Positions 13,943 through 31,904 of a stretch of DNA of 64,000 bases are shown here, in pieces. Under the pieces are notes generated by a model. It was not told where the DNA came from and searched no databases. It saw only the letters and a program-made list of their open reading frames with translations. The stretch comes from a virus. The position numbers were made by a program, and so were the translations under genes. Where the stretch lies: the IMG/VR virus record IMGVR_UViG_3300021963_000038, positions 1 through 64,000 of that record. The stretch is one strand, 5' to 3'. Within the stretch, counting starts at the first letter, position 1. Each line of letters opens with the position of its first letter.

Positions 13943-16900
13943 ATGTCGTTAAATACTAATTTTAATGTCAATCCGTATTATGACGATTATGATGAAGATA
14001 AGAAATTTCTTCGTCTATTGTTCAAACCAGGTTATGCGGTTCAAGCTCGTGAATTGACACAAGCTCAAACACTTCTACAAAAACAAGTAGAGCGTTTTGG
14101 CCAACATATCTTTAAAAATGGCTCCGTTGTTTCGGGTGGTCAATTATTCATTCACGATACCACATATTTAAATGTAAGTACAGATTACGCCGGTACAGCT
14201 GTTAACATTAATAATTTTAATGGTAAAACAATCACCAATGTGGCAGGAACAAAAGTTGGTGAAGTGGTTGTTGTTTATGATACAAATACTGGCGTAACAC
14301 CAAATGAACCAAAAACAGTTTATGTAAAACAAATTTCAGGTGCACCATTTGCTGCTGGTGATACAATTACCACAGTTGAAAATAGTCCAGTTTTTGCCAA
14401 TGTCGCAACAGGTGGTGTTGGAACCGGACAAACATTTTCTGTAACTGATGGTGTTTATTTTTATGATGGATTTTTTCTTAAAAATAGTGAACAAACAATT
14501 GCAATTAGTAAATATAATACATCATCTAACGTAAGAGTTGGTTTTGAAATTACAGAATCTATTATTGAATCCACACAAGATACATCTTTGTTGGATCCAG
14601 CACAAGACGCTTCAAACTTCCAAGCTCCAGGTGCTGATAGATTTAAAATTGATTTAATTCTTTCTAGAAGAGCACTTGATTCTACTGATGACTCACAATT
14701 TATTGAATTGGCTCGAGTTGTAAATGGAACTTTATCTTATGCATTAATTTACCCACAGTATGCTGTTCTTGAAGATACTTTAGCCAGAAGAACATATGAT
14801 GAATCTGGTAACTATACTGTTCGACCATTTAAACTTGCATTAGAAACAAGTTCTGCTAATACAGCAAAAGCTAATGTTATTTTATCTCCAGGTAAAGCAT
14901 ATGTTTATGGTTATGAATATGAAACAATTTCACCAACAACAATTACATTTGATAAACCACGCACAACAGATTCAGTTTCAGATAAACGATTAACTGCTGA
15001 CTATGGTTACTATGTGTATTCAAATACACATTTTGGTTCTTTACCAATTAACAGTTTACAAACAGTAGATTTGCATTGTGTATCAAATAGTGTAATTAAT
15101 GTAACAACTTCTAGCACAATTACTAACACTAAGGTTGGTACAGCTCGTGTTAAATCTATTGCATTTGAAACATCTGCAAATACACAAAATTCTGCAACAT
15201 ATACCTATCGCACATATCTGTTTGATGTGAATGTTGGTTCAATCACTGGTGGTAATGTTGTTGTATTGGGAACAAATACTGGTTACGTTCAAATTGCAAA
15301 CAGTATAACTGGTTCACAAATATATTCTACAGCCAATAATGCATATACAGGTGCTAAATTTAGAATTCTGACCGGTCCTGGTGCTGGTGAAAAACCAAGA
15401 ACAATTACAAACTATAATGGTGCAACTCAGACAATTCAACTTTCTGAGCCTTTTGTTAACACACCAAATTCATTGTCTAATTGGTCTATTGATTTTGAAT
15501 TTAATGATGTTAAATCATTATCAGTAGTTAGTAGCACAACTCGTCTTGCTGCAGCTGATATTGATATTTCATCTAAAGACCCAGCTTCAACATATAACGA
15601 CACATTCATTTCAGATAGTAATCTTGAACCATTATTATTTAATCTTGGTCAAAATTATGTTGCACAAAATACAATTGCTAATTTTGATTATTCTTACAAG
15701 CGTTTGTATGAATCACAATCATTTTCATCTTCACAATCTCCAGCATTAACTGTTGGTACAGGTGAAACAATTTCAAGTGCAACAAGTTCTACCGCTAAAG
15801 CTGAGAATTATCAAATTGTTGTAACATCTTCTGGTACATCACCATATACTGTTGGTCAAATTATTCCTACCAATTTATTTACTGTTGATACAGGCACTCG
15901 TAAAATTACTGTTACTTCTGGTAACAACATGGTTGCAAATATTACTGCAACGATAGATGCAAGTAATCCTGGTTCAAAAGGAAAAACATATGTTGGTGCC
16001 AATTCAACAATTCAAACGTCTGGTGGCACCAGCATTTTTGCAAATAATGGAGTGATGCTCTATACTGCAAATGGCCAAGTTCATATTATGGCCAATACAG
16101 TTCTTAAAACTCCAGATTCCATTCAATCTTTATTTGTTCCTGATGTAATTGAATTGGTTTCTGTTTTAGATTTCAATGGAAATCAGATTACCACTTCTAA
16201 TGCATCTACTGCAACTAATGTTACAACACGTTACACATTAGATAGTGGTCAACGTGATTCGTTCTATGACCACTCATCTATTAGATTAAAAGCTGATGTA
16301 GCTGCACCTGTTGGTCCTTTAGTTGTTAAGTTTAATCGTTTTAGTTCATCTGGTGCAGGATTATTTACCGTAGATTCATATGTTGGATACAATTACGGAG
16401 CTATTCCTGTTTATACCTCTCAGGCAACAGGGCAAGTTTACCCACTAAGAGATTGCCTTGATTATAGACCAGTTAGGACAATACCGACAACATCAGTTAC
16501 AGCAAATACTGTCAGCTTCGATGTTGATTCAACCACGACTGGTCCTAAGATTCCAGAGAATGGTTCCGATGTGATTTTAGATTATCAATATTATCTACCA
16601 AGAACAGACAAGGTAATATTGAACAAAAATCGTACCTTTGAAGTTGTCCAAGGCAATCCTTCTTTGACGCCAATTGTGCCTCTTGATAAAGAAGGTGCAA
16701 TGACAATGTATATTCTCCGTGAACCGGCTTATGTTGCCAATACATCTGAAATTGAAGTTCAATACATTGATAACAGACGTTATACAATGCGTGATATTGC
16801 CAACATTGATAAACGTATTGGTAATTTAGAGTATTACACTTCACTTTCTTTGCTTGAACAAAATGCATTGAATAAACAAGATTTGACCATTTTGGATTCT

Positions 16901-20644: not shown

Positions 20645-20653
20645 TATAAATAG
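20645..20653 (+). promoter_or_regulatory. T4-type late promoter box
   Basis: TATAAATAG is a full match to the T4 late consensus, 26 bases before the ATG at 20680. An AAGGA ribosome site lies between, so this is a conventional late promoter with a leader. Confidence 0.8.
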
Positions 20654-20679: not shown

Positions 20680-21006
20680 ATGGCAAACAATTTTAAAAAT
20701 TATTTTTTGAAAAACGCTAGCACTACTGCAGCTAATGCGTATGTTGGCCCAACAGCAACACAGTCCACAATTATTGGTATGACGATTGGTAACACAACTT
20801 CATCACCAATTAGTTGTAATGTAACTGTTGTTTCTGGTGGTACAACATATTTCATGCTACAAAATGCGACTATCTCTAATGGTGGCGCATTAGTACCAAT
20901 TGGTGGTGACCAAAAACTTGTTATGGAAGCTGGAGATTATATGCAAGTACAAACATCTGCAACAAATTCTGCTGATGTGATTGTATCGGTTTTGGAGATT
21001 ACATAA
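20680..21006 (+). CDS. Small beta-rich fibre-region protein (YVVPAATS family, divergent member)
   Basis: A 108-residue, probably beta-sandwich protein. It shares a pattern with five other copies in this region: a polar start, AxAYVGPTATQSTIIGMTIGN near residue 20-40, a central YFMLQNATI strand, a GG turn, an LVMEAGDYMQVQ strand and a terminal EIT. It is the most divergent of the six. Function is unknown; its place among fibre genes suggests a small virion or fibre-cap component. Confidence 0.65.
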   Translation: MANNFKNYFLKNASTTAANAYVGPTATQSTIIGMTIGNTTSSPISCNVTVVSGGTTYFMLQNATISNGGALVPIGGDQKLVMEAGDYMQVQTSATNSADVIVSVLEIT

Positions 21007-21007
21007 T

Positions 21008-21709
21008 ATGTCATACCTTGGCAACCAGCCTGGTGTAGGTTCTTTTATTGTTTCAACCGAAAGGTTCAACGGTACGGGTTCTTGCACACAATTTTCGTTA
21101 ACACAAACAGGCATTCAAGACCCAAATGCGATTGAGGTTCTTGTTAATAGTATTCAACAGGATCCAATAAATTCATATTCTGTTGCCAATGGTGTAATCA
21201 CATTTACTGAGGCACCTTCTTCTGGCGCAAATAACATTATTGTTACATATCGTGCAACAACGATAATTACATATAACAATTTACTGAATTCACAAATACC
21301 AGATGGTACAATTACTGCATCTAAGTTAGCTTCTGGTGTTTTACCTTCTGCTGCAGCTAATTCAGCGGCAACTTATGCTAACAGTTCTTTTGCAGTAGCC
21401 AACTCAGCGGCAAGTTATGCCAATGCGGCTTTCGGTCAAGCAAACAACGTCATCGGTGCCGCATCGTATGCAAACTCTGCTTTTGCAGCTGCTAATACTG
21501 GTGGTTCTGCTGCAGTTTATGCTAACGGTGCTTTTGCTCAAGCAAACACCGATGTTACTAATATAAACATTACTACTGGTACATACGGCAATTCAGCCTA
21601 TTATCCAATCATTACTGTTTCTGCAAATGGTAGAATTAATACAGTAACAACACAAGTGGTAACGGGTGTGGATGCTCATCCGTTTTTCTTTACAGCAATG
21701 GGGTCATAA
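21008..21709 (+). CDS. Tail fibre protein with N-terminal attachment domain and Ala-Asn-Ser repeats
   Basis: A 233-residue protein. The start is the ATG just after the previous stop (MSYLGNQPGVGSF), preferred over an upstream alternative codon at 20981 inside the previous gene. Residues 1-100 form a beta-rich attachment-type domain (RFNGTGSCTQFSLTQTG, VLVNSIQQDPINSYSVANGV) seen at the start of many phage fibres. DGTITASKLASGVLP links it to YANSSFAVANSAASYANAAF-type repeats. The C-terminal part (TTGTYGNSAYYPIITVSANG) is shared with the fibre ending at 37598. It is probably trimeric. Confidence 0.75.
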   Translation: MSYLGNQPGVGSFIVSTERFNGTGSCTQFSLTQTGIQDPNAIEVLVNSIQQDPINSYSVANGVITFTEAPSSGANNIIVTYRATTIITYNNLLNSQIPDGTITASKLASGVLPSAAANSAATYANSSFAVANSAASYANAAFGQANNVIGAASYANSAFAAANTGGSAAVYANGAFAQANTDVTNINITTGTYGNSAYYPIITVSANGRINTVTTQVVTGVDAHPFFFTAMGS

Positions 21710-22056
21710 TGCCAACAGCATATAAAATTTTAGGTCAAACATTACCAACTGCAAACACACTAAGTAATGTGTATGTGGTTCCTGCAGCAACATCTGCAAT
21801 CATTAGCACAATTACTATTTGTAATCAAAGTTCAGCTAATGCTAACGTAGATATTATGATTAGACCAATCAATGAAACATTAGCAAACAAACATTATATG
21901 ATAAAAGGTGTTACGATTCCTAGAGCAGACACAATGATTTTGTCACCAGGTGTTACATTAAATGCATCGGTCATTGTTGCAGTAAATAATGCTGTTGTTT
22001 CAGGTGAAACTGCTGCTAACGTATCGTTCAACGTATTTGGAGTAGAGTTAACATAA
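21709..22056 (+). CDS. YVVPAATS-family small beta-rich protein
   Basis: A 115-residue member of the six-copy family. It carries the family start TAYKILGQTLPTANTLSNVY, then VVPAATSAIISTITICNQSS, HYMIKGVTIPRADTMILSPG and a terminal VSFNVFGVELT. The start overlaps the stop of the previous fibre gene (TAATG), and the stop overlaps the next family member in the same way. Function is unknown. The same domain is fused to a fibre in the protein at 27762-28697, so these proteins probably sit on or with fibres. Confidence 0.7.
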   Translation: MPTAYKILGQTLPTANTLSNVYVVPAATSAIISTITICNQSSANANVDIMIRPINETLANKHYMIKGVTIPRADTMILSPGVTLNASVIVAVNNAVVSGETAANVSFNVFGVELT

Positions 22057-22397
22057 TGCCTAATACCTATAAAATTCTTGGTCAAGTAAACCCATCCGCA
22101 AATACACAAAGTAATGTGTATGTGGTTCCTGCTGCAACTTCGTCAGTAATTAATTCAGTTCAGATTGCAAATCAATCAGCATCAAATGCTTCATATAGTT
22201 TGATTGTGATGCCATCTGCTAACTTTGCAAGTCCAGCTTCTAATGGAATGTATTTTATTATTCGTGGTAGCACGATACCAGCATCAGACGCTGCGACACT
22301 TACTTTGAGTTTATCATTACCTGCTGGTGCAGTATTAGCCGCAAACACAAACTCAGCGAGTATCTCTTTTCAAGCGTTCGGTGTTGAAATCACCTAA
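22056..22397 (+). CDS. YVVPAATS-family small beta-rich protein
   Basis: A 113-residue paralogue of the preceding gene (NTYKILGQVNPSANTQSNVY, VVPAATSSVINSVQIANQSA, FIIRGSTIPASDAATLTLSL, terminal FGVEIT). It is closer to the copies at 26423 and 28697 than to its direct neighbour (shared NPxANTQxNVYVVPAA and SNASYSL). It is translationally coupled to the previous gene by a TAATG overlap and stands directly before the first glycine-rich adhesin gene, an order repeated at 26423/26761 and 28697/29046. Confidence 0.7.
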   Translation: MPNTYKILGQVNPSANTQSNVYVVPAATSSVINSVQIANQSASNASYSLIVMPSANFASPASNGMYFIIRGSTIPASDAATLTLSLSLPAGAVLAANTNSASISFQAFGVEIT

Positions 22398-22413: not shown

Positions 22414-23349
22414 ATGTCGATACTATTTCTAAAAACTTCTCCAACTGGTTCTTTTGTAAGACCTAGTGGATACGCATTTCCAACCGGAATCACTAATGCT
22501 GGAGATAATGATAATGGCCCAACATCTGTTGATTATCTTGTAATCGCTGGCGCTGGTGGTGCCGGCAGCGGTGTATATAATGCTGGTGGTGGCGGCGGTG
22601 GAGGTGCAGGTGGATTTTTAACTGGTACATCATTTGCAATTGCAAGAGGCACTTCTTATTCTATTACAGTAGGTGCAGGTGGCGCAGGTGGTCCTAATGT
22701 GGGAAGTTTATCTGGTTCTCCAGCTCCTGGAACACATGGTGCTAACGGATTTAATAGTGTATTTTCTTCATTGACTGCAATTGCTGGTGGTGGAGGTGGT
22801 TCAGGAAATCCTTCAGGACCAACAGCAACACCTGCAACACCGGGTGGTTATAACGGTGGTTCAGGTGGCGGCGGTGCAGTGGGTGGTTCTGGTGGACTTG
22901 GAACACCAGGTCAAGGAACTGATGGTGGTGCAGGACAAACACTTGGTGCTGGTGGTGGAGGTTCTGGTGGTGCAGGTGCTAGTAGAGGTGGAAATCCTGG
23001 TGGTAAAGGTGGCGCAGGATCAGGTACTGCATCGCCATACTCAGGTAGTCCAGTAACATATTCAACTGGTGGAAATGGCGGAGAAAACGTAGCAAGACCT
23101 CCAGGTGGTTCTGACGGTGGTGCAGGCCCAGCTAATACTGGCACTGGTGGTGACGCTGGCGGTCAAGGTGGTGGCCAAACAGGTTCAGGTGGTAACGGTG
23201 GCTCAGGTATTGTAATCATTCGTTATTCTGGTGCTCAAGCAGCTGCTGGTGGTAATTATTCTAATCCAGCTCCTGGTGCAACATCAATACATACTTTTAC
23301 TGGTGATGGAACTTTCCGTTCCAACTTAACGAATTATCTTATCAATTAA
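22414..23349 (+). CDS. Glycine-rich adhesin-like protein 1 of 7
   Basis: A 311-residue protein. Residues 1-45 (SFVRPSGYAFPTGI) are a conserved head. Then comes VDYLVIAGAGGAG, a long Gly-rich region with GGGGGGGAGGFLTGTSFAIA, and a conserved end SGIVIIRYSGAQAAAGGNYS followed by SIHTFTGDGTF. The alternating poly-Gly blocks and short variable loops resemble the polyglycine-helix receptor-binding tips of T2/S16-type gp38 adhesins. By that analogy it would bind the host surface. Variable loops between the Gly blocks differ among the seven copies. A GAGGTGAT ribosome site precedes the ATG. Confidence 0.72.
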   Translation: MSILFLKTSPTGSFVRPSGYAFPTGITNAGDNDNGPTSVDYLVIAGAGGAGSGVYNAGGGGGGGAGGFLTGTSFAIARGTSYSITVGAGGAGGPNVGSLSGSPAPGTHGANGFNSVFSSLTAIAGGGGGSGNPSGPTATPATPGGYNGGSGGGGAVGGSGGLGTPGQGTDGGAGQTLGAGGGGSGGAGASRGGNPGGKGGAGSGTASPYSGSPVTYSTGGNGGENVARPPGGSDGGAGPANTGTGGDAGGQGGGQTGSGGNGGSGIVIIRYSGAQAAAGGNYSNPAPGATSIHTFTGDGTFRSNLTNYLIN

Positions 23350-23351
23350 AA

Positions 23352-24275
23352 ATGTCAGCAATTAAATTTATAAAAGCAAATAAAGTTGGCAAATTAATTA
23401 GGCCGAGTGGATATAATTTTCCAACCGGTTTAGGTGGTTTTCCTGCTGATTTAACAATTGATTATCTTGTAGTTGCAGGTGGTGGTGGTGGCGGTGAAAA
23501 TTTGGGTGGCGGTGCTGGTGCTGGTGGTTTTTTAACTGCATCTGGTGCCACGATGACAACAGGAACATCTAGAACTGTTACAGTAGGTGGTGGTGGTTCA
23601 GGTGGTGGATATCCTGGTACACCTGCTGCTAATGGATCAAATTCAATATTCGGTCCAGCTATAGTTGCTATTGGTGGTGGCCGTGGTGGCGGTGGTTCTG
23701 TAACTCCATATGCAGACGGTGGTTCTGGTGGTGGCGCAAGACAACAAAATGGTTTTGGACTTGGAACTCCAGGTCAAGGAAATAATGGTGCTCAAATATC
23801 TCCACTTAATCCTGCTGTTGGTGGCGGAGGTGGCGGTGGGGCTGGCTCTGTTGGTAGTGGTGGAACACCAGGTCAAAATAGAGGAGGTGACGGTGGTTCT
23901 GGTTTAGCATCACCATTGAGTGGTACACCAGTAACATATGCTGGTGGCGGTGGCGGTGGCGGTTATCCTGTTACTGGCACACCAGCTGGTACGGGTGGAA
24001 ATTTTCAAGTATCATCTCCAGCAACTGCTCCAGGTGGTGGCGGTCCTGGTAATGGTGGTGGTGGTTCAACCAATACTGGCGGTGGTGCTGGAGGCGGCGG
24101 TGTTAATACTGGTGCTGCTGCTGGTGGTTCAGGAATTGTAATCATTCGCTATCTTGGAACTCAAGCAGCTGCAGGTGGAAATTATAGTTCAAGTGGTGGT
24201 TACTCTATACATACATTCAATGGTGATGGTACTTTTAGTGCTAACTCTGGCCCAACAACGTACATCGTAAATTAA
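23352..24275 (+). CDS. Glycine-rich adhesin-like protein 2 of 7
   Basis: A 307-residue paralogue. The head is GKLIRPSGYNFPTGLGGFPA, then IDYLVVAGGGGGGENLGGGA and GFLTASGATMTTGTSRTVTV. The end is SGIVIIRYLGTQAAAGGNYS and YSIHTFNGDGTFSAN. This copy has an unusual RTVTVGGGGSGGGYPGTPAA loop and IVAIGGGRGGGGSVTPYADG. The start is only two bases after the previous stop, so it is co-translated with copy 1. The strong GGN codon bias opens long false frames on the other strand; the paralogue alignment shows that this is the coding frame. Confidence 0.72.
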   Translation: MSAIKFIKANKVGKLIRPSGYNFPTGLGGFPADLTIDYLVVAGGGGGGENLGGGAGAGGFLTASGATMTTGTSRTVTVGGGGSGGGYPGTPAANGSNSIFGPAIVAIGGGRGGGGSVTPYADGGSGGGARQQNGFGLGTPGQGNNGAQISPLNPAVGGGGGGGAGSVGSGGTPGQNRGGDGGSGLASPLSGTPVTYAGGGGGGGYPVTGTPAGTGGNFQVSSPATAPGGGGPGNGGGGSTNTGGGAGGGGVNTGAAAGGSGIVIIRYLGTQAAAGGNYSSSGGYSIHTFNGDGTFSANSGPTTYIVN

Positions 24276-24283
24276 AGAACAAA

Positions 24284-25192
24284 ATGGGAATTGAATTTTT
24301 AAAAGCTTCTAAGAATTTTGCTCTTGTGAGACCAAGTGGATACACGTTTCCAACAGGACTAACTAGTGGTGGTAATTTATTGGTTGATTATCTTGTTGTC
24401 GCTGGTGGAGGTGGTGGTGGAAGAGATTTAGCTGCTGGAGCAAATCAAGCTGCCGGTGGTGGCGGTGCAGGTGGTTTCTTAACTGGTGCAGGGTTTTCTG
24501 TAACACAAGGAACATCTTATTCTATTACAGTAGGTGCTGGAGGTCCAGGTGGTGCTGCAAGCAGTAGCGGTAGTAATGGATCAAATTCAGTTTTTTCATC
24601 ATTAACAGCTGTTGGTGGTGGCGGCGGTCGTAATAACGGTGTAGGATTTTCTGGTGGTTCAGGTGGTGGAGGTTCAGCGTCAACTAATGCTGGTGGGCCA
24701 GGAACTCCAGGTCAAGGTAATGCTGGTGGTACTGCTGGTGGATTTCGCTCGGGTGGCGGCGGAGGTTCTGGTGCAGTAGGTCAAGACGGTCCTGCGGGGA
24801 CTCCATATCAAGGTGGCGCTGGTGGTAATGGTACTGCATCACCATATTCAGGTTCACCAGTAACATATGCTGGCGGCGGTGGTGGTGGGGGATACAATAC
24901 TCCTGTGCAAGCTCCTGGTGGATCGGGCGGTGGAGGTGCAGGTAGTGCTCAAACTGGAAATGCAGGTTCAGCTCCAAATAATACTGGAAGTGGAGGTGGT
25001 GGTTGTGGTAGTGATGCTTCTGGCGTTACTGGTTCTTCTGGTTCAGGTGGTTCAGGTGTTGTAATCATTCGTTATCTTGGTGCTCAAGCAGCTGCTGGTG
25101 GAAATTATTCATCATCAGGTGGATACTCTATACATAGATTCACCGGTGATTCAGCCTTTAGTGCTAACACAACGGGTTACATCATAGATTAA
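24284..25192 (+). CDS. Glycine-rich adhesin-like protein 3 of 7
   Basis: A 302-residue paralogue (NFALVRPSGYTFPTGLTSGG, VDYLVVAGGGGGGRDLAAGA, GFLTGAGFSVTQGTSYSITV, end SGVVIIRYLGAQAAAGGNYS). It ends with RFTGDSAFSANTTGYIID. The YSITVGAGG block is shared with copy 1, and the end is nearly the same as in copy 2, so the copies look mosaic. A single cysteine (GGGGCGSDAS) lies in the last Gly region. It closes the first run of three adhesin genes; two unrelated genes follow. Confidence 0.72.
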   Translation: MGIEFLKASKNFALVRPSGYTFPTGLTSGGNLLVDYLVVAGGGGGGRDLAAGANQAAGGGGAGGFLTGAGFSVTQGTSYSITVGAGGPGGAASSSGSNGSNSVFSSLTAVGGGGGRNNGVGFSGGSGGGGSASTNAGGPGTPGQGNAGGTAGGFRSGGGGGSGAVGQDGPAGTPYQGGAGGNGTASPYSGSPVTYAGGGGGGGYNTPVQAPGGSGGGGAGSAQTGNAGSAPNNTGSGGGGCGSDASGVTGSSGSGGSGVVIIRYLGAQAAAGGNYSSSGGYSIHRFTGDSAFSANTTGYIID

Positions 25193-25225
25193 TAGGTAAA
25201 AAAAATAATATCACAATAAGAATAG

Positions 25226-25233
25226 CATAAATA
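25226..25233 (+). promoter_or_regulatory. T4-type late promoter box
   Basis: CATAAATA lies 36 bases before the ATG at 25270, in the 77-base gap after adhesin 3. A strong GGAGG ribosome site (25257-25261) follows. Confidence 0.65.
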
Positions 25234-25269
25234 TAAGTATCATTTTATACTATTTTGGAGGTTAAAAAA

Positions 25270-25665
25270 ATGGCACATTTCGCAAAAATTAATAAAGCTA
25301 CAAACGAAGTTCTTCATGTATCCGTTGTTGATAACTGGAACTGCGTTGATGGCACAGGCAAAGAAGTAGAAGCAATAGGCATCACATACCTTGAAGGTGT
25401 TCATGGTGTGCATGATGATGTTTATTGGAAACAAACAAGTTACAACAATAACATTCGTAAAAATTATGCCGGTATTGGTATGACATACGATGCGGGTCGT
25501 GATGCTTTCATTGCACCTAAACCATATCCATCATGGGTATTAGTTGAAGAAACTTGCCAATGGAAAGCACCCGTTGATATGCCAGCTGATGCTGGCACAG
25601 GAAATCCACCTAAGATGTATCGTTGGGATGAAGCAACATTAAGTCATGTTGAAATGACAATTTAA
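25270..25665 (+). CDS. Conserved aquatic-phage protein (MAHFAKI family)
   Basis: A 131-residue protein. The start is the ATG eight bases after a GGAGG ribosome site; a TTG five codons upstream overlaps that site and is unlikely. The sequence MAHFAKINKATNEVLHVSVV, then WKQTSYNNNIRKNYAGIGMT and PYPSWVLVEETCQWKAPVDM, matches a short family common in T4-like phages of aquatic bacteria, of unknown function and often beside fibre genes. It may be a structural or fibre-associated protein. It forms a two-gene unit with the next gene. Confidence 0.75.
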   Translation: MAHFAKINKATNEVLHVSVVDNWNCVDGTGKEVEAIGITYLEGVHGVHDDVYWKQTSYNNNIRKNYAGIGMTYDAGRDAFIAPKPYPSWVLVEETCQWKAPVDMPADAGTGNPPKMYRWDEATLSHVEMTI

Positions 25666-25681
25666 TTATTAGGAGTATAAA

Positions 25682-26089
25682 ATGGATTTAAATAACGCAA
25701 GTGATGTGATGAAAAACTTTTCAGCTGAGAATGGAATGCCGGTAGGAATTGATACTGCAATTAAGGCTTTAAGACCTGGTTGCACTTTTGAAATTGCAAT
25801 GTCTGGTGGTGTTGTTACTTATCATAAGTGGTATCACCCTGATGGTTTATCAGCACCAACAAAAGCTGAGATTGATGAAGAAATTGTTTTCCAAGAAAAA
25901 TTGGCAAAACATTATCAGTATGCATACGATAGGTGCCGTCATTACCCTGATGGGTTTGAACAACTTGATATGTTGTGGCACGCTATCAATGAAGGTGTTG
26001 AATTGAAAAATTCAGAGTGGTTTAATACGATTAAAGAAGTTAAAGAAAAGTTTCCTAAATCTGAAGGCCCAGCACCAACAAAAGATTAA
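25682..26089 (+). CDS. Putative tail-assembly-chaperone-like protein
   Basis: A 135-residue protein. The C-terminal half (KHYQYAYDRCRHYPDGFEQL, DMLWHAINEGVE, FNTIKEVKEKFPKSEGPAP) follows the Y-x-R-x-x-x-YP ... Q-LD-xLW ... I-x-x-VK-x-x-(F/Y)PK pattern of short proteins encoded beside tail fibre genes in many phages, some annotated as tail or fibre assembly chaperones. The N-terminal half is variable (IDTAIKALRPGCTFEIAMSG). The function is inferred from the pattern and place. A TTAGGAG ribosome site precedes the ATG. Confidence 0.6.
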   Translation: MDLNNASDVMKNFSAENGMPVGIDTAIKALRPGCTFEIAMSGGVVTYHKWYHPDGLSAPTKAEIDEEIVFQEKLAKHYQYAYDRCRHYPDGFEQLDMLWHAINEGVELKNSEWFNTIKEVKEKFPKSEGPAPTKD

Positions 26090-26101
26090 TTAGAAAAATA
26101 G

Positions 26102-26110
26102 AATAAATAG
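26102..26110 (+). promoter_or_regulatory. T4-type late promoter box
   Basis: AATAAATAG ends six bases before the ATG at 26117, with no ribosome site in between. It would give a nearly leaderless transcript. Confidence 0.5.
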
Positions 26111-26116
26111 ACCACT

Positions 26117-26416
26117 ATGGCACTCAATAAAGTAAACGCAGATTCAATCGCAGACGGCACAGTTGTTGCTGCTGACATTGCAGACAATACAATTACCTTA
26201 GCAAAGTTGCAAAGTGGTCTGTTGCCTACTGCAATCGCAAATTCAGCAGCTGCATATGCTAACTCAGGATTTGCAGTTGCCAATTCATCAGCATCTTATG
26301 CTAACTCAGGTTTTGCAGTAGCTAACTCAGCGGCAAGTTATGCTAACTCAGGATTTTCAACCGCTAACACGGCAACAACTTCAATACCAAACATTTTCAT
26401 GTTATCAGGAATGTAA
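26117..26416 (+). CDS. Short Ala-Asn-Ser repeat fibre protein
   Basis: A 99-residue protein. It opens with NADSIADGTVVAADIADNTI and TLAKLQSGLLP, the linker type also seen in the fibre at 21008. Three YANSGFAVANSAAS-type 14-residue repeats follow and then a short end (IPNIFMLSGM). It lacks the N-terminal attachment domain of the longer fibres. It may be a reduced fibre shaft or a spacer protein. It begins a second block whose order (repeat fibre, YVVPAATS protein, Gly-rich adhesin) repeats that of the first. Confidence 0.65.
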   Translation: MALNKVNADSIADGTVVAADIADNTITLAKLQSGLLPTAIANSAAAYANSGFAVANSSASYANSGFAVANSAASYANSGFSTANTATTSIPNIFMLSGM

Positions 26417-26422
26417 AAACAT

Positions 26423-26761
26423 ATGGCACAAACATATAAACGATTAGGCGCAATCAACCCATCTGCAAATACGCAGACAAATGTGTATGTTGTGCCAGCA
26501 GCAACTTCAACAGTATTTTCATCAATTACAATTTGTAATCAAACAGCATCTAATGCTTCTTACAGTTTAGCTTTGATGAACAATTCAGAATTTAATGCTT
26601 CAGCACCAGCAGCAACATTTATTGTTCGTGGTGCAACTGTACCTGCCGCAGACACAATTGTTCTTACATTAGGTCTGACCGCTAATGCAGGTATGGTGCT
26701 TGCAGCAAATGCAAGTTCAGCATCAATTTCAATCGCAGCTTTTGGTTCAGAGATTACATAA
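26423..26761 (+). CDS. YVVPAATS-family small beta-rich protein
   Basis: A 112-residue paralogue (QTYKRLGAINPSANTQTNVY, VVPAATSTVFSSITICNQTA, FIVRGATVPAADTIVLTLGL, end SIAAFGSEIT). It overlaps the next start by TAATG, so it is translationally coupled to glycine-rich adhesin 4. The repeated pairing of this family with adhesin genes suggests the two products act together, for example as a connector or cap for the adhesin; this is inference from gene order. Confidence 0.7.
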   Translation: MAQTYKRLGAINPSANTQTNVYVVPAATSTVFSSITICNQTASNASYSLALMNNSEFNASAPAATFIVRGATVPAADTIVLTLGLTANAGMVLAANASSASISIAAFGSEIT

Positions 26762-27741
26762 TGGCAGTTCGTTCAGCAAATTTATTAACTTTTACATCAG
26801 TCAATAAAAAAGGTGTTAGACCAGATGGTTATGCTTTTCCAGTTGGACTAACACAAACTGTTGCTGGCCAAGCTGCAGGACCAACTTCAGTAGATTATCT
26901 TGTAGTCGCTGGTGGTGGCGGTGGAGGTAGTCGATATGCTGGCGGCGGCGGTGCCGGTGGATTTTTAACTGGAACAGGATTTTCTATAACAACGGGAACA
27001 CCATACACCGTAACTGTTGGTGGTGGTGGACCAGGTAATGCTTATGTTAGTCCAGGTCAAGGTGGCGATGGAGGTAATTCAATATTTGGTCCATCTATAA
27101 CAGCCACTGGTGGCGGTGGTGGCGGCGGTGAAACTCCACCTTCAAGTGTGGGCACTGGTCGTGCTGGGGGTTCTGGTGGCGGTGCTAACTCGGGCGCAGG
27201 CGGATCAGGAACTCCAGGTCAAGGAAATAATGGCGGTTCAGCTTCATCTCCAGGTTTAGGATCTAATGCAACAGGCGGTGGTGGTGGCGGTGCCGGTGGA
27301 GCTGGTAGTTCTGGAGGAGCATATAGTTCTGGATATCCAGCAACGGGCACTGGCGGCCTTGGTACTGCATCACCTTATTCTGGTTCACCAGTAACATATG
27401 CTGGTGGCGGTGGTGCAGGAAATGGAACTGGTGGTGGTGTTTGTCTTGGTGGTCCAGGAACTCCAGGGGTAAGTGGTGGTAACGGATCCGGCGGTAGCGC
27501 AACTGGTGTTGCAGGAACTACTAACACGGGTGGTGGAGGTGGCGGTGGAAATTTTGATGGTAGTATAGGAAAAACTGGCGGTGCCGGCGGTTCTGGTATT
27601 GTAATCATTCGTTATACTGGTAGTCAAGGTGCTGCTGGTGGAAACTATTCATCATCTGGTGGTTATTCAATACATACATTCACTGGTAGTGGATCATTTA
27701 CATCCAATACATTCATAGCTGCCACTTATAACATCAATTAA
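26761..27741 (+). CDS. Glycine-rich adhesin-like protein 4 of 7
   Basis: A 326-residue paralogue, the longest of the set. Key blocks are KGVRPDGYAFPVGLTQTVAG, VDYLVVAGGGGGGSRYAGGG, GFLTGTGFSITTGTPYTVTV, and the end SGIVIIRYTGSQGAAGGNYS. Eighty bases here (26956-27035) are identical to adhesin 5 (29223-29302), although flanking parts differ, which points to recent recombination. A single cysteine lies in GGGVCLGGPGTPG. The product probably forms a polyglycine-helix tip of a fibre, by analogy with gp38 adhesins. Confidence 0.72.
   Translation: MAVRSANLLTFTSVNKKGVRPDGYAFPVGLTQTVAGQAAGPTSVDYLVVAGGGGGGSRYAGGGGAGGFLTGTGFSITTGTPYTVTVGGGGPGNAYVSPGQGGDGGNSIFGPSITATGGGGGGGETPPSSVGTGRAGGSGGGANSGAGGSGTPGQGNNGGSASSPGLGSNATGGGGGGAGGAGSSGGAYSSGYPATGTGGLGTASPYSGSPVTYAGGGGAGNGTGGGVCLGGPGTPGVSGGNGSGGSATGVAGTTNTGGGGGGGNFDGSIGKTGGAGGSGIVIIRYTGSQGAAGGNYSSSGGYSIHTFTGSGSFTSNTFIAATYNIN
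26956..27035 (+). repeat. 80-bp identical block shared with 29223-29302
   Basis: The block runs from GGTGGATTTTTAACTGG to GGTGGACCAGG and is base-for-base the same in adhesins 4 and 5. Synonymous positions are unchanged, unlike the surrounding sequence, which suggests a recent exchange rather than protein-level conservation. Confidence 0.8.
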
Positions 27742-27746
27742 AACAG

Positions 27747-27755
27747 AATAAATAA
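27747..27755 (+). promoter_or_regulatory. T4-type late promoter box
   Basis: AATAAATAA ends six bases before the ATG at 27762. There is no ribosome site in the gap, another near-leaderless arrangement. Confidence 0.5.
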
Positions 27756-27761
27756 TCAATT

Positions 27762-28697
27762 ATGTCATATATTGGAAATCAGGTAACATCAATACCGTTT
27801 ATCACAGATATCTTTTCTGGTACTGGCGCTCAAACGGCATTTACTCCACTAACAAGAGCTCCTGCTGGTACTGCATCAATTGCTGTTTTCATTGCTGGTG
27901 TATATCAACCGCCTTCTGCATACACATTAAATGGTGTTACTCTTACATTCAGTTCAGCACCAACAGCTGGCACAGGTAACATTGTTGTTCTACATCTAGG
28001 TAATGGTTCTGCTGTTCAAGTTCCATCGGACGGTTCAGTTACATTACTCAAACTATCTAACGATACTTACTCATATATCAATTCTGCATTTACTGCGGCT
28101 AATACTGGTGGCTCAGCAGCATCATATGCTAACTCAGGATTTGCGGTTGCTAACTCAGCGGCAAGTTATGCCAATGCAGCTTTTATCTCTGCAAATTTAA
28201 GTAATGGTATTGATACTACACAAAATACAAATATTACGAATGTTGGTACATATGCCAACTCAGCATTTGCTAAGGCAAACAATGCCACATCAAACGGTTC
28301 TTTTGCCGTAACAGGTTCAGGCTTAGCAGTTTCATTAACTGGTTCAGTAATAACTGGTTACAAAATTTTAGGTCAAATTGTAACAACGGCAAATTCAATT
28401 GCCAACGTATATGTTGTACCAGCTGCAACATCAGCTTCAATCGGTACAATCACAGTTTGTAATGGCACAGCAAACGATGTTCTATTAGATTTGATATCAA
28501 GACCATCTACTGAAGCTTTAGCTGCAAAACATTATATTGTTAAAGGCATCACACTGCCAGCTGCGGATACACTCATCATAGATAGTGGTGTATCATTAAA
28601 TACTGGTGCTATTTTAGCTGCCAACACAACTGGTGGCAATGCAGCCGCTTCTGCTGCAGGCATATCAGTTCACGCATATGGAGTTGAAATCGTATAA
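27762..28697 (+). CDS. Fusion fibre: attachment domain, Ala-Asn-Ser repeats and YVVPAATS domain
   Basis: A 311-residue protein in three parts. Residues 1-100 form a beta-rich attachment-type domain (YIGNQVTSIPFITDIFSGTG, VFIAGVYQPPSAYTLNGVTL) related to the start of the fibre at 21008. Residues about 104-190 hold YANSGFAVANSAASYANAAF-type repeats and TQNTNITNVGTYANSAFAKA. Residues about 200-311 are a full YVVPAATS domain (GYKILGQIVTTANSIANVYV, end ISVHAYGVEIV). In the first block the same parts are encoded by separate genes (21008 and 21709), so this copy shows that the two proteins belong together. It is coupled to the next gene by a TAATG overlap. Confidence 0.75.
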   Translation: MSYIGNQVTSIPFITDIFSGTGAQTAFTPLTRAPAGTASIAVFIAGVYQPPSAYTLNGVTLTFSSAPTAGTGNIVVLHLGNGSAVQVPSDGSVTLLKLSNDTYSYINSAFTAANTGGSAASYANSGFAVANSAASYANAAFISANLSNGIDTTQNTNITNVGTYANSAFAKANNATSNGSFAVTGSGLAVSLTGSVITGYKILGQIVTTANSIANVYVVPAATSASIGTITVCNGTANDVLLDLISRPSTEALAAKHYIVKGITLPAADTLIIDSGVSLNTGAILAANTTGGNAAASAAGISVHAYGVEIV

Positions 28698-29035
28698 TGG
28701 CAAACGCATATAAAATTTTAGGTCAATTAAATCCAACAGCTAATACACAAGGTAATGTGTATGTTGTGCCGGCAGCTTCAGCTGGAATTATTGAAACTAT
28801 TACAATCGCAAATCAATCAACAACTAATGCATCTTACAGTTTAATTGTGATGCCAGCTGCCAACTTTGCTTCACCAGCCGCAAACACATATTTCGTTGTT
28901 CGTGGTGGTTTAGCTCCTGCAAGTGATACTGCAATCATCGACCTTAACCTCAATTTGCCTGCTGGCACAGTCTTTGCTGCCAATGCAAGCACATCTTCTA
29001 TTTCCATATCGGCATTTGGCGTAGAAGTTTCTTAA
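28697..29035 (+). CDS. YVVPAATS-family small beta-rich protein
   Basis: A 112-residue paralogue (NAYKILGQLNPTANTQGNVY, VVPAASAGIIETITIANQST, FVVRGGLAPASDTAIIDLNL, end ISISAFGVEVS). It is close to the copy at 22056 (shared SLIVMPAANFASPA). It sits directly before adhesin 5, repeating the order of the other two blocks. Function is unknown. Confidence 0.7.
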   Translation: MANAYKILGQLNPTANTQGNVYVVPAASAGIIETITIANQSTTNASYSLIVMPAANFASPAANTYFVVRGGLAPASDTAIIDLNLNLPAGTVFAANASTSSISISAFGVEVS

Positions 29036-29045
29036 AGGCATTAAA

Positions 29046-29957
29046 ATGGGCGTAAGATATTTTAATGCCAAACAAACAAATGGTAGACTACTCAGACCGC
29101 AGGGATATGCATTTCCTGTGGGATTAACTATACTTGTTGCGGCAGGTCCAACTTCAGTAGATTATCTTGTAGTCGCTGGAGGTGGTGGGGGAGGTAACGG
29201 TAATGGTGGTGGAGGCGGCGCTGGTGGATTTTTAACTGGAACAGGATTTTCTATAACAACGGGAACACCATACACCGTAACTGTTGGTGGTGGTGGACCA
29301 GGATCAGCGTCGACCTCCCAAAAAGCTTCGAATGGATCAAATTCTATATTTTCTAGTATAACTTCTGTTGGTGGCGGAGGTGGCGGATCAAATCAAAATA
29401 GAGCAGGATTAAATGGTGGTTCAGGCGGCGGCGCCGGTTCTGCTTCCGATAGTGTAAGTGCGAGTGGTGGTTCTGCTACTCCAAGTCAAGGAAATAATGG
29501 CGGTACAAACGGAACAGGTGCCGCTGCAGGTGGTGGTGGTGGAGCTGGCGGTTCTGGTGGAAACGCATCAGGAACCACTACTGGTAACGGTGGTTCAGGA
29601 ACAGCATCACCATATTCTGGTACACCAGTAACATATGCTGGTGGTGGTGGAGGTGGTGCTAGGAGTGATTTAAGTCAAACACCAGGTACAGGCGGTTCAG
29701 GTGTTGGAGGTGCCGGTGGTTATCCATCAGGAGGTAGTAATGGTTCACCAAATTCTGGTGGTGGAGCTGGAGGATCAGGTTTTGGTGCAAACTCTGGAGG
29801 AACTGGTGGTTCTGGTATTGTAATCATTCGATATGCAGGTGCTCAAACTGCAGCTGGTGGAAACTATTCTTATCCATCTCCTTTTGCATATTCTATACAT
29901 ACATTCACTGGTGATGGTACATTCACAAGTAATACTTTATTATACGCTGTCAACTAA
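29046..29957 (+). CDS. Glycine-rich adhesin-like protein 5 of 7
   Basis: A 303-residue paralogue (GRLLRPQGYAFPVGLTILVA, VDYLVVAGGGGGGNGNGGGG, GFLTGTGFSITTGTPYTVTV, end SGIVIIRYAGAQTAAGGNYS, then YPSPFAYSIHTFTGDGTFTS). The front half is identical over 80 bases to adhesin 4. The end is identical over 78 bases to adhesin 6 (29829-29906 and 30816-30893). The gene is therefore a mosaic of its two neighbours. The middle loops (SASTSQKASNGSN, RSDLSQTPGTGGSG) are its own. It opens the second run of three adhesin genes. Confidence 0.72.
   Translation: MGVRYFNAKQTNGRLLRPQGYAFPVGLTILVAAGPTSVDYLVVAGGGGGGNGNGGGGGAGGFLTGTGFSITTGTPYTVTVGGGGPGSASTSQKASNGSNSIFSSITSVGGGGGGSNQNRAGLNGGSGGGAGSASDSVSASGGSATPSQGNNGGTNGTGAAAGGGGGAGGSGGNASGTTTGNGGSGTASPYSGTPVTYAGGGGGGARSDLSQTPGTGGSGVGGAGGYPSGGSNGSPNSGGGAGGSGFGANSGGTGGSGIVIIRYAGAQTAAGGNYSYPSPFAYSIHTFTGDGTFTSNTLLYAVN
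29223..29302 (+). repeat. 80-bp identical block shared with 26956-27035
   Basis: Partner copy of the block in adhesin 4. The two lie about 2.2 kb apart in the same orientation, so recombination between them would delete or duplicate the genes in between. Confidence 0.8.
29829..29906 (+). repeat. 78-bp identical block shared with 30816-30893
   Basis: The block covers the conserved C-terminal end (RYAGAQTAAGGNYS to SIHTF) of adhesin 5 and is base-for-base the same in adhesin 6. Bases just outside differ, for example GTAATCATT versus GTAATTCTT upstream. Confidence 0.8.
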
Positions 29958-29966
29958 AAAATAATT

Positions 29967-30941
29967 ATGGGTATAAAATATATCAACAAACCTGCGACTG
30001 GTTCTTATTTTTTAAGGCCGCAGGGATATTCATTCCCAACAGGATTAAATATAGCAGGAACACTATCTCTTGATTATCTTGTCGTTGGTGGTGGAGGTGG
30101 CGGTGGAAGTAGTGGAAGTGCAAATGGTGGTGGAGGTGGTGCAGGTGGTTTTAGAACAGGTTCAGGTTTTGTTGTGTTGGGTGGAACATCATATGCTGTT
30201 ACAGTAGGTGCCGGTGGTCCAGCAACATCAACTCCATCTTTTGTCAGAGGCAGTCAAGGGTCAAACACTACTTTCTCTACAATATCTTCTGCTGGTGGTG
30301 GCGGTGGTGGTTCATATGGTCCCACACTTGCAAATGGCCTTGATGGTGGTAGTGGGGGTGGTGCAGGCCAATCAAATGGAAATGCATACACAGGTGGTTC
30401 AGGTAATATTCCATCGACAAGTCCAAGTCAAGGAAATGCTGGTGGTAGTATGCCAGGTAATCCATCTCCTGGAAGAGGTGGTGCCGGCGGCGGTGGCGCA
30501 GGTGCTGGCGGTAATCCTCCAACTGGTTCTCCATTGCAACCTACTGGTGGTGCTGGTGGTGCTGGTAGTGCGTCACCTTTATCAGGTTCACCAGTAAATT
30601 ATGCTGGCGGTGGTTCTGGTGGCAGTCATAGTACAGGTGGAAGTGCCACTCCTGGAGGTCTTGGTGGTGGCGGCGCAGGAAGTTTTTCAAGTACAGTTGC
30701 TGGTGCTGGAACTCCTAACACCGGCGGTGGTGGCGGTGGTGCATCAGATGGAAATTCAGGGTCTTTCGTTGCATCATGGAATGGTGCAGGTGGTGGTTCT
30801 GGTATTGTAATTCTTCGATATGCAGGTGCTCAAACTGCAGCTGGTGGAAACTATTCTTATCCATCTCCTTTTGCATATTCTATACATACATTCCTTGGTG
30901 ATGGCACGTTTAGAGCAAACGGAACATATAGTGTTAATTAA
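29967..30941 (+). CDS. Glycine-rich adhesin-like protein 6 of 7
   Basis: A 324-residue paralogue (GSYFLRPQGYSFPTGLNIAG, LDYLVVGGGGGGGSSGSANG, GFRTGSGFVVLGGTSYAVTV, end SGIVILRYAGAQTAAGGNYS). The loop NIPSTSPSQGNAGG is close to adhesin 7 (NTPSTSPSQGSNGG), while the end matches adhesin 5. This copy has FRTG in place of FLTG, as does adhesin 7. It is nine bases after the previous stop and nine bases before the next gene, so it is co-expressed with both. By analogy with gp38-type adhesins it probably contacts the host surface. Confidence 0.72.
   Translation: MGIKYINKPATGSYFLRPQGYSFPTGLNIAGTLSLDYLVVGGGGGGGSSGSANGGGGGAGGFRTGSGFVVLGGTSYAVTVGAGGPATSTPSFVRGSQGSNTTFSTISSAGGGGGGSYGPTLANGLDGGSGGGAGQSNGNAYTGGSGNIPSTSPSQGNAGGSMPGNPSPGRGGAGGGGAGAGGNPPTGSPLQPTGGAGGAGSASPLSGSPVNYAGGGSGGSHSTGGSATPGGLGGGGAGSFSSTVAGAGTPNTGGGGGGASDGNSGSFVASWNGAGGGSGIVILRYAGAQTAAGGNYSYPSPFAYSIHTFLGDGTFRANGTYSVN
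30816..30893 (+). repeat. 78-bp identical block shared with 29829-29906
   Basis: Partner copy of the block at the 3' end of adhesin 5. It is in the same orientation, about 0.99 kb away, which is close to one adhesin gene length. Confidence 0.8.
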
Positions 30942-30950
30942 GAGATAATT

Positions 30951-31904
30951 ATGGGCGCTTCATACACAGCAGGTAAAACAACAATAGGTGCGTTTCTTAG
31001 ACCGCAAGGATATGCATTTCCTGTGGGATTAACAACTGGTGTTCCTTTATCACTTTCAGTAGACTATCTTGTTGTAGCTGGTGGCGGAGGTGGAGGTAGA
31101 CAGCGTGGCGGTGGCGGCGGAGCAGGCGGTTTTAGAACAGGCACAGGATTTTCTATAACACAAGGAACGCCATACGCTGTAACTGTTGGTGGTGGTGGTC
31201 CAGGTTCAACAGTTACAACAGCGAGAGGCACAAACGGCAATGATTCCGTTTTTTCTACCATCACATCTACTGGTGGTGGCGGTGGCGGGTCATCAATTTC
31301 AACTGCATCTTCTGCTATTTTAAGTGGCGCAAGTGGCGGGTCTGGTGGGGGCAGTGCGGCTGATTCAGCGGCAGGAACAACATCCGGTTCTGGAGGCGCA
31401 GGAAATACTCCATCTACAAGCCCAAGCCAAGGTAGCAATGGAGGCGTTTGCAACCCCGCACCCGCCTATGGTGGAGGTGGAGGTGGCGGCGCAGGTGCTG
31501 TTGGAGGAAATGGCAGCGGCAGTCATCCAAGCTCGGTTGCTGGTACTGGTGGTAATGGTGTTGCATCACCATATTCTGGTTCACCAGTAACATATGCTGG
31601 TGGAGGCGGCGGCGGTCAACAAAACAATGGCCCATTTGCTGGAGGCACTGGAGGCGGAGGCGCTGGTACTGGTGGTGTAGGCGCTGGAGGAAATGCAACT
31701 CCAAATACAGGTGGTGGCGGTGGCGGTGATGGTAATGCTGGTGTTAATGGTGGTGCCGGCGGCTCAGGTATCGTAATCATTCGTTATACAGGTTCTCAAG
31801 CTGCTGGTGGTGGTAATTACTCCTCGTCTGGTGGATATTCTATACATACCTTTCTTGGTGATGGCACTTTTAGTGCTAATAACACAGGTTACTTTGTCAA
31901 CTAA
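30951..31904 (+). CDS. Glycine-rich adhesin-like protein 7 of 7
   Basis: A 317-residue paralogue (IGAFLRPQGYAFPVGLTTGV, VDYLVVAGGGGGGRQRGGGG, GFRTGTGFSITQGTPYAVTV, end SGIVIIRYTGSQAAGGGNYS, then YSIHTFLGDGTFSANNTGYF). It has a single cysteine in GGVCNPAPAYGGG. It is the last gene before a strong terminator, so the adhesin block ends here as a transcription unit. The codon use is richer in GGC than in most neighbours, giving a local rise in G+C. Confidence 0.72.
   Translation: MGASYTAGKTTIGAFLRPQGYAFPVGLTTGVPLSLSVDYLVVAGGGGGGRQRGGGGGAGGFRTGTGFSITQGTPYAVTVGGGGPGSTVTTARGTNGNDSVFSTITSTGGGGGGSSISTASSAILSGASGGSGGGSAADSAAGTTSGSGGAGNTPSTSPSQGSNGGVCNPAPAYGGGGGGGAGAVGGNGSGSHPSSVAGTGGNGVASPYSGSPVTYAGGGGGGQQNNGPFAGGTGGGGAGTGGVGAGGNATPNTGGGGGGDGNAGVNGGAGGSGIVIIRYTGSQAAGGGNYSSSGGYSIHTFLGDGTFSANNTGYFVN

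What the first reader, a model, noticed from the sequence alone, without database searches (positions are those of the whole stretch)
22414..31904. Array of seven paralogous glycine-rich adhesin-like genes
Seven genes of 302-326 codons (22414, 23352, 24284, 26761, 29046, 29967, 30951) share a conserved head (RPxGYxFPxGL, VDYLVVAGGGGGG) and end (SGIVIIRY, GGNYS, SIHTF) but have different loops between poly-Gly blocks. T2/S16-type phages carry one gp38 adhesin with polyglycine helices and variable loops. Seven in one genome suggests a repertoire for several receptors or a mixed fibre tip. Seen: the repeats and order. Known: the gp38 analogy. Inferred: the repertoire role.
Basis: partly seen in the sequence, partly recalled or inferred. 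Interest (0 to 1): 0.82.

Follow-up and report, generated by a model that had tools for sequence, protein, structure and literature searches.

The report
Seven swappable phage adhesins on docking heads
A metagenomic T4-like phage carries seven related glycine-rich tail-fibre adhesins in its host-recognition gene cluster; each keeps its own short docking head while the receptor-facing body changes fast and at least once has moved between heads, which would let the phage swap or combine receptors without rebuilding its tail.

Summary
In detail: seven complete genes, all Pfam Gly_rich_2, exactly seven in the 135.9-kb phage record. The S16 gp38 comparison holds only as "works like". The modelled copy (pLDDT 88.7) resembles the cyanophage Pam3 fibre tip and the ALK/LTK TNF-like plus glycine-rich fold; S16 gp38 is not among the hits, and its Trp-tipped attachment helices are absent. 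The array lies between VrlC and the neck genes, the known host-recognition cluster of cyano/pelagimyophages.
New from comparison with related contigs: in every one of 43 such genes, what lies just upstream is either a small jelly-roll gene (26) or another adhesin (17). Genes at matching positions in different phages share the 15-20-aa head (87-94% DNA in close pairs) but not the body (58-68%). One body (94% DNA identity) sits on two different heads, with the break at the RPxGYxFPxGL joint. Neighbouring window copies share short conversion tracts. There is no reverse transcriptase or invertase.
Best reading: co-expressed adhesins with fixed docking heads and exchangeable receptor-binding bodies, like Ackermannviridae tailspikes but on another fold. 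Display on the virion and receptor binding are inferred. New variant of a known kind.

The parts
13943..19885 (+). VrlC homologue, 1980 aa; upstream border of the host-recognition cluster
   Evidence: tblastn to Mosig 'putative VrlC protein' (41%); phrog_358
20645..20652 (+). T4-type late promoter motif TATAAATA, 28 nt before the 20680 gene
   Evidence: total count equals chance, but 4 of 6 hits lie 7-28 nt before a gene start
20680..21006 (+). diverged copy of the jelly-roll (KILGQ-type) small protein
   Evidence: profile hit 2.8e-34
21709..22056 (+). KILGQ-type jelly-roll protein
   Evidence: profile hit 8e-47; phrog_1276
22056..22397 (+). KILGQ-type jelly-roll protein directly upstream of adhesin g1; candidate adaptor
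22414..23349 (+). adhesin g1, head class H1 (MSILFLKTSPTGSFV)
   Evidence: PF21722 62 bits
23352..24275 (+). adhesin g2, head class H2 (MSAIKFIKANKVGKLI)
   Evidence: PF21722 54.6 bits
24284..25192 (+). adhesin g3, head class H3 (MGIEFLKASKNFALV)
   Evidence: PF21722 92.7 bits
25270..25665 (+). small protein (HFAK...), candidate fibre chaperone; one copy in genome
   Evidence: phrog_7759; directly follows a Gly-rich fibre gene in phages HTVC025P and Bellamy and adhesin runs in relatives
25682..26089 (+). small protein (MDLNN...), partner of the previous gene, function unknown
   Evidence: phrog_9114/1787; follows HFAK in most relatives
26423..26761 (+). KRLG-type jelly-roll protein, stop overlaps the g4 start
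26761..27741 (+). adhesin g4, head class H4 (MAVRSANLLTFTSVNKKGV)
   Evidence: PF21722 68.3 bits
27762..28697 (+). tail-fibre protein with YANS repeats and a C-terminal KILGQ-type domain
   Evidence: phrog_18673 tail fibre; profile hit 8.6e-41
28697..29035 (+). KILGQ-type jelly-roll protein upstream of g5; modelled
   Evidence: AlphaFold pLDDT 84
29046..29957 (+). adhesin g5 (MGVRYFNAKQTNGRLL); modelled
   Evidence: PF21722 94.9 bits; AlphaFold pLDDT 88.7, pTM 0.85
29967..30941 (+). adhesin g6 (MGIKYINKPATGSYFL)
   Evidence: PF21722 90.1 bits
30951..31904 (+). adhesin g7 (MGASYTAGKTTIGAFL)
   Evidence: PF21722 65.8 bits
37602..39455 (+). two neck genes, downstream border of the host-recognition cluster
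   Evidence: phrog_211 and phrog_460 connector families

Best explanation
The seven genes encode tail-fibre tip adhesins made together in late infection. Each has three modules: a class-specific head of about 15-20 residues that docks to its own site, most likely the small jelly-roll protein encoded just upstream or a neighbouring adhesin; an RPxGYxFPxGL joint; and a TNF-like plus glycine-rich body whose scaffold is conserved but whose loops between glycine blocks vary and should touch the receptor. Heads stay at fixed genomic positions, while bodies diverge quickly and are at times exchanged between heads by homologous recombination in the conserved joint and C-terminal tail. The phage can thus change or combine receptors without changing how adhesins attach. 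Shown here: gene structure, family, predicted fold of one copy, gene order rule, head/body uncoupling, one body transfer, short conversion tracts. Inferred: docking partner, presence of several adhesins on one virion, receptor binding.
For: Family: 7 of 7 PF21722. Fold: g5 model, best PDB hits Pam3 fibre 7ypx (E 2.1e-3, prob 1.00), Bxb1 tail tip, ALK/LTK. Position: between VrlC and neck genes, the host-recognition cluster of pelagi/cyanomyophages (PMC7029224). Gene order: 43 headed adhesins, 26 preceded by the jelly-roll gene, 17 by another adhesin, none by anything else. Head/body: same head class in different phages has head identity 0.66 but body identity 0.59, about equal to different classes (0.58) and to shuffled labels (788 of 2000 shuffles reach it); DNA of window vs L206 87-89% in head and joint, 62-65% in body. 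The jelly-roll protein covaries with the head (Mantel r 0.36, p 2e-4) but not with the body (r 0.08, p 0.2). Transfer: L188_644 (H3 head) and L206_13816 (H1 head) share body 94% and tail 98% in DNA, head 78%. Conversion: 26-codon identical runs g4/g5 and g5/g6, none in 500 codon shuffles each. Function in related folds: mutations in a Pam3-like glycine-rich domain bear on recognition of Klebsiella LPS (PMC12671077).
Against: No virion proteomics, receptor or host is known. Only one adhesin was modelled, as a monomer, and the head is disordered in it, so docking has no structural support. Foldseek scores are modest (E above 0.001, TM 0.35-0.42). Body identity sits near a compositional floor, so fast divergence in place could explain much of the head/body uncoupling; only one full body transfer was seen. 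Jelly-roll/head covariation could partly reflect linkage of adjacent DNA. All relatives with this arrangement are metagenomic contigs.
Confidence: 0.66

Rival explanations
1. A reservoir: only one or two copies reach the virion; the others are silent or weakly used donors that refresh the working copy by gene conversion.
For: Conversion tracts between neighbouring copies and a body moved between heads.
Against: All seven are intact with starts, tight spacing of 2-9 nt within runs and no decay; each keeps a position-specific head across phages, which silent donors would not need.
Confidence: 0.14
2. Branched or stacked fibre parts: some copies are structural (spacer or cap) and only the terminal one binds the receptor.
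For: Runs of adhesins follow one another directly (17 of 43); related proteins hold several glycine-rich domains in one chain.
Against: All seven vary in the loops between glycine blocks; a pure spacer should be conserved.
Confidence: 0.12
3. True T2/S16 gp38 adhesins expanded to seven copies.
For: Glycine-rich motifs separated by hypervariable segments; tail-fibre context in a T4-like phage.
Against: No Trp in any copy and no N-terminal helices in the model; no 6F45 hit; nearest solved fold is another fibre type.
Confidence: 0.03
4. Capsid or baseplate decoration proteins, or proteins displayed on the infected host, not receptor-binding.
For: The jelly-roll neighbours weakly resemble cement and turret proteins.
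Against: Location in the host-recognition cluster next to fibre genes; fibre-tip fold; rapid body turnover.
Confidence: 0.05

Closest known systems
Pam3 gp24 tail fibre (PDB 7ypx/7yfw, PMC9608196)
   Same: TNF-like plus glycine-rich domain with conserved glycine blocks and variable distal loops; a small gene next to it in some relatives
   Different: Pam3 has one copy with a long helical docking domain; here seven copies with a 15-20-aa head and a strand-like motif after the domain instead of before it
Ackermannviridae branched tailspike complex TSP1-4 (PMC11414711)
   Same: several paralogous receptor-binding proteins, distinct conserved N-terminal docking regions, exchangeable receptor-binding parts, recombination in conserved 5' parts
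   Different: different fold and docking domains (XD/gp10-like), large tailspikes, mostly up to four copies; here small glycine-rich adhesins
Salmonella phage S16 / PP01 / T2 gp38 (PDB 6F45, PMC6851490, PMC12892980)
   Same: glycine-rich motifs with hypervariable loops that bind the receptor
   Different: Trp-tipped helical attachment domain and beta-helix absent here; one gp38 caps each gp37 fibre in those phages
Haloarchaeal hafunavirus glycine-rich adhesin (PMC8651126)
   Same: a glycine-rich fibre gene followed by a small gene is linked to host range
   Different: one adhesin gene per virus there
Host-recognition cluster of pelagimyophages and cyanomyophages (PMC7029224)
   Same: same position between VrlC and neck genes; hypervariable, with fibre genes
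   Different: the passages read describe no adhesin array with heads and bodies

Membership tests
Pfam PF21722 Gly_rich_2 | score above the curated cut-off over the domain | tested here: met
   54.6-94.9 bits against 24.3, seven of seven
Pfam PF21722 Gly_rich_2 | canonical order, with the HTF strand before the glycine-rich core | tested here: inconclusive
   the motif lies at the C-terminus here and before the core in some relatives; permuted in silico it gains only 1.1 bits over a shuffled control for g5
S16/T2 gp38 adhesin | N-terminal helices with conserved Trp that dock to gp37 | tested here: not met
   no Trp in any of the seven; no helix in residues 1-36 of the g5 model, residues 1-17 disordered
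S16/T2 gp38 adhesin | beta-helix plus polyglycine sandwich fold | tested here: not met
   6F45 not among 31 PDB hits at E<=10; one copy modelled
S16/T2 gp38 adhesin | polyglycine type II helices in a lattice | not testable with these tools
Pam3 gp24-type fibre tip (TNF-like plus glycine-rich) | overall fold | tested here: met
   7ypx_A best hit, prob 1.00, E 2.1e-3, TM 0.35-0.42; 7yfw third; ALK/LTK next. Profile search E 0.06. Met, at modest scores
Pam3 gp24-type fibre tip (TNF-like plus glycine-rich) | N-terminal alpha-helical baseplate-docking domain | tested here: not met
   only a 15-20-aa head before the joint
Pam3 gp24-type fibre tip (TNF-like plus glycine-rich) | cognate chaperone gene next to it | tested here: inconclusive
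   25270-25665 relatives follow Gly-rich fibre genes in Bellamy and HTVC025P but not in S-TIM4 or Greip
Ackermannviridae branched tailspikes | XD/gp10-like docking domains and tailspike bodies | tested here: not met
   no such family among Pfam and PHROG matches of the adhesins
Diversity-generating retroelement | reverse transcriptase in the genome | tested here: not met
   no RVT_1 in the 135.9-kb record
Invertible fibre (phase-variation) system | serine recombinase plus inverted cassettes | tested here: not met
   no PF00239; all copies on one strand with their own starts

The most novel reading that the evidence does not exclude
A single virion displays up to seven different adhesins at once, each class plugged by its own short head into a cognate jelly-roll adaptor, while the receptor-binding bodies are shuffled among heads as cassettes within and between phages: a modular, multivalent receptor-recognition system in T4-like aquatic phages.
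Probability: 0.35. Interest if true: 0.8.

Novelty: new variant of a known kind. Interest (0 to 1): 0.6.

Why it matters
How phages of abundant aquatic bacteria change or widen host range is largely unknown. A locus in which attachment heads are fixed and receptor-binding bodies are exchangeable gives a concrete, testable route, and suggests a sequence handle (head class, joint, body) for annotating many unlabelled glycine-rich phage proteins and for linking phages to receptors.

Tried and rejected
The first PDB sequence searches gave nothing useful (none; E 0.28); a broader alignment gave weak Pam3 hits, and its top hit (3o3x gp41-5) is taken as a glycine-linker artefact. In-silico permutation test of the C-terminal HTF motif against Pfam was inconclusive, so circular permutation is only suggested. 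Reverse transcriptase and serine recombinase: none. Non-glycine proteins with the same head: none in fetched loci. Scan of bacterial genomes with joined heads: no relative. Rfam: nothing in the region. Sigma-70 promoter and terminator scans near chance.

Full report
WHAT IS THERE. The seven genes are real, complete and at the stated coordinates. They lie on the plus strand in three runs: g1-g3 (22414-25192), g4 (26761-27741), g5-g7 (29046-31904). Within runs the gaps are 2-9 nt. They share 50-66% amino-acid identity; the invariant positions are the RPxGYxFPxG joint, the DYLV strand, many glycines, an SG[IV]V[IL]xRY strand and a GGNYS...SIHxF tail. Every copy passes the Pfam cut-off for Gly_rich_2 and matches phrog_2295, of unknown function. 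The whole 135.9-kb virus record has exactly seven. The terminase is 49% identical to methylophage Melnitz and 47% to Pelagibacter phage Mosig; Melnitz has three genes of this family and Mosig one. A separately catalogued contig, identical over 20,954 bp, carries the same seven.

POSITION. Upstream lies a VrlC homologue (41% to the Mosig protein) and downstream the two neck genes. This is the host-recognition cluster described for pelagimyophages and cyanomyophages (PMC7029224). A late-promoter motif TATAAATA lies 28 nt before gene 20680; the total number of such motifs equals chance, but four of six sit 7-28 nt before a gene start. Co-expression of the block is therefore likely but inferred.

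FOLD. AlphaFold of g5 with 46 aligned sequences gave pLDDT 88.7 and pTM 0.85; residues 1-17 are disordered and the C-terminal strands are placed with good confidence. The best solved matches are the Pam3 cyanophage fibre, the Bxb1 tail tip and the TNF-like plus glycine-rich region of ALK/LTK; S16 gp38 is not listed. Many predicted viral 'glycine-rich domain' proteins match strongly, including ones from pelagiphage HTVC025P and cyanophages. Scores against solved structures are modest, and only one copy was modelled. In the Pam3 paper the distal tip of the glycine-rich domain is the least conserved part and is the proposed receptor site (PMC9608196); in a Klebsiella phage with a Pam3-like fibre, mutations in this domain bear on LPS recognition (PMC12671077). 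So the function 'receptor-binding fibre tip' is well founded by analogy, and gp38 membership is not (no Trp, no helical attachment domain).

HEAD, JOINT, BODY. Among relatives fetched through their neck, VrlC and downstream genes, together with the window, there are 43 distinct adhesins with the RPxGY joint. Of these, 26 are directly preceded by a 110-aa protein family (KILGQ/KRLG type) and the other 17 by another adhesin; none by anything else. The small protein is predicted as a jelly-roll (pLDDT 84) with only weak matches to known structures. Heads fall into classes that recur in different phages, for example MSILFLKT, MSAIKFIK, MGIEFLKA, MSVRRLG, MGDTTKQFS.

Between phages, members of one head class share the head (mean 0.66) but their bodies are no more alike (0.59) than those of different classes (0.58); shuffled class labels reach the observed body value in 788 of 2000 trials. 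In DNA, window against L206 gives 87-89% in head and joint and 62-65% in body for g1, g2 and g3, while flanking DNA is 88-91% identical. The small protein's similarity follows the head (Mantel r 0.36, p 2e-4), not the body (r 0.08, p 0.2). Caution: body identity is near a floor set by glycine content, and adjacent DNA is co-inherited.

EXCHANGE. One body is found on two heads: L188_644 (head H3) and L206_13816 (head H1) are 94% identical in body DNA and 98% in tail, but 78% in head; L188 shares its H3 head at 94% with a different L206 gene whose body is 58% identical. The contigs are collinear before and after, so the event is a body replacement with borders in the joint and near the tail. Which of the two is derived is open. 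A chimeric assembly cannot be ruled out from contigs, but the two joints in L206 share only short identical stretches, shorter than usual assembly words. Inside the window, g4/g5 and g5/g6 share 26-codon identical runs although synonymous sites are otherwise near random; no codon shuffle of 500 reaches this. No reverse transcriptase and no serine recombinase was found, so ordinary homologous recombination is the likely agent.

HELPER GENES. Two small genes (25270, 25682) occur once in the genome and follow adhesin runs in many relatives. The first directly follows a glycine-rich fibre gene in HTVC025P and Bellamy but not in S-TIM4 or Greip. A chaperone role, as for Pam3 gp25, is plausible and untested.

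JUDGEMENT. The nearest working analogue is the Ackermannviridae tailspike complex: several paralogues with conserved N-terminal docking parts and exchangeable receptor-binding parts (PMC11414711). The present locus appears to follow the same strategy on a different fold, with short heads, a jelly-roll partner and up to seven copies. Limits: no host, no proteomics, one modelled copy, metagenomic relatives. In the papers searched I found no description of this head/body arrangement, but the library lacks most subscription journals.

Noticed in passing
22414-31904, C-termini: The GGxxxSSGGYxIHTFTGdGTF motif ends these proteins, whereas in other Gly_rich_2 proteins (L022, L016, L191) it precedes the glycine-rich core; possible circular permutation. 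Nearly all complete members end in [YF]-x-[IV]-N.
   Followed up: partly
32650-34293 and 35742-37598: Fibre-shaft-like proteins with 13 and 21 counted YANSAF/YANSGF repeats.
   Followed up: no
L193 (reverse strand, about 15929-16588 of the reversed locus) and L223:15356-16048: Inserted ORFs that look like homing-endonuclease-type genes within the fibre region of relatives (judged by eye only).
   Followed up: no
G000 about 88-98 kb, outside the window: Block of sugar-modifying and transferase-like genes, possibly surface-altering (judged by eye only).
   Followed up: no
L284 (record G076): Relative with eleven Gly_rich_2 domains, many in ORFs of 900-1111 aa, showing that expansion can also occur inside one chain.
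   Followed up: partly
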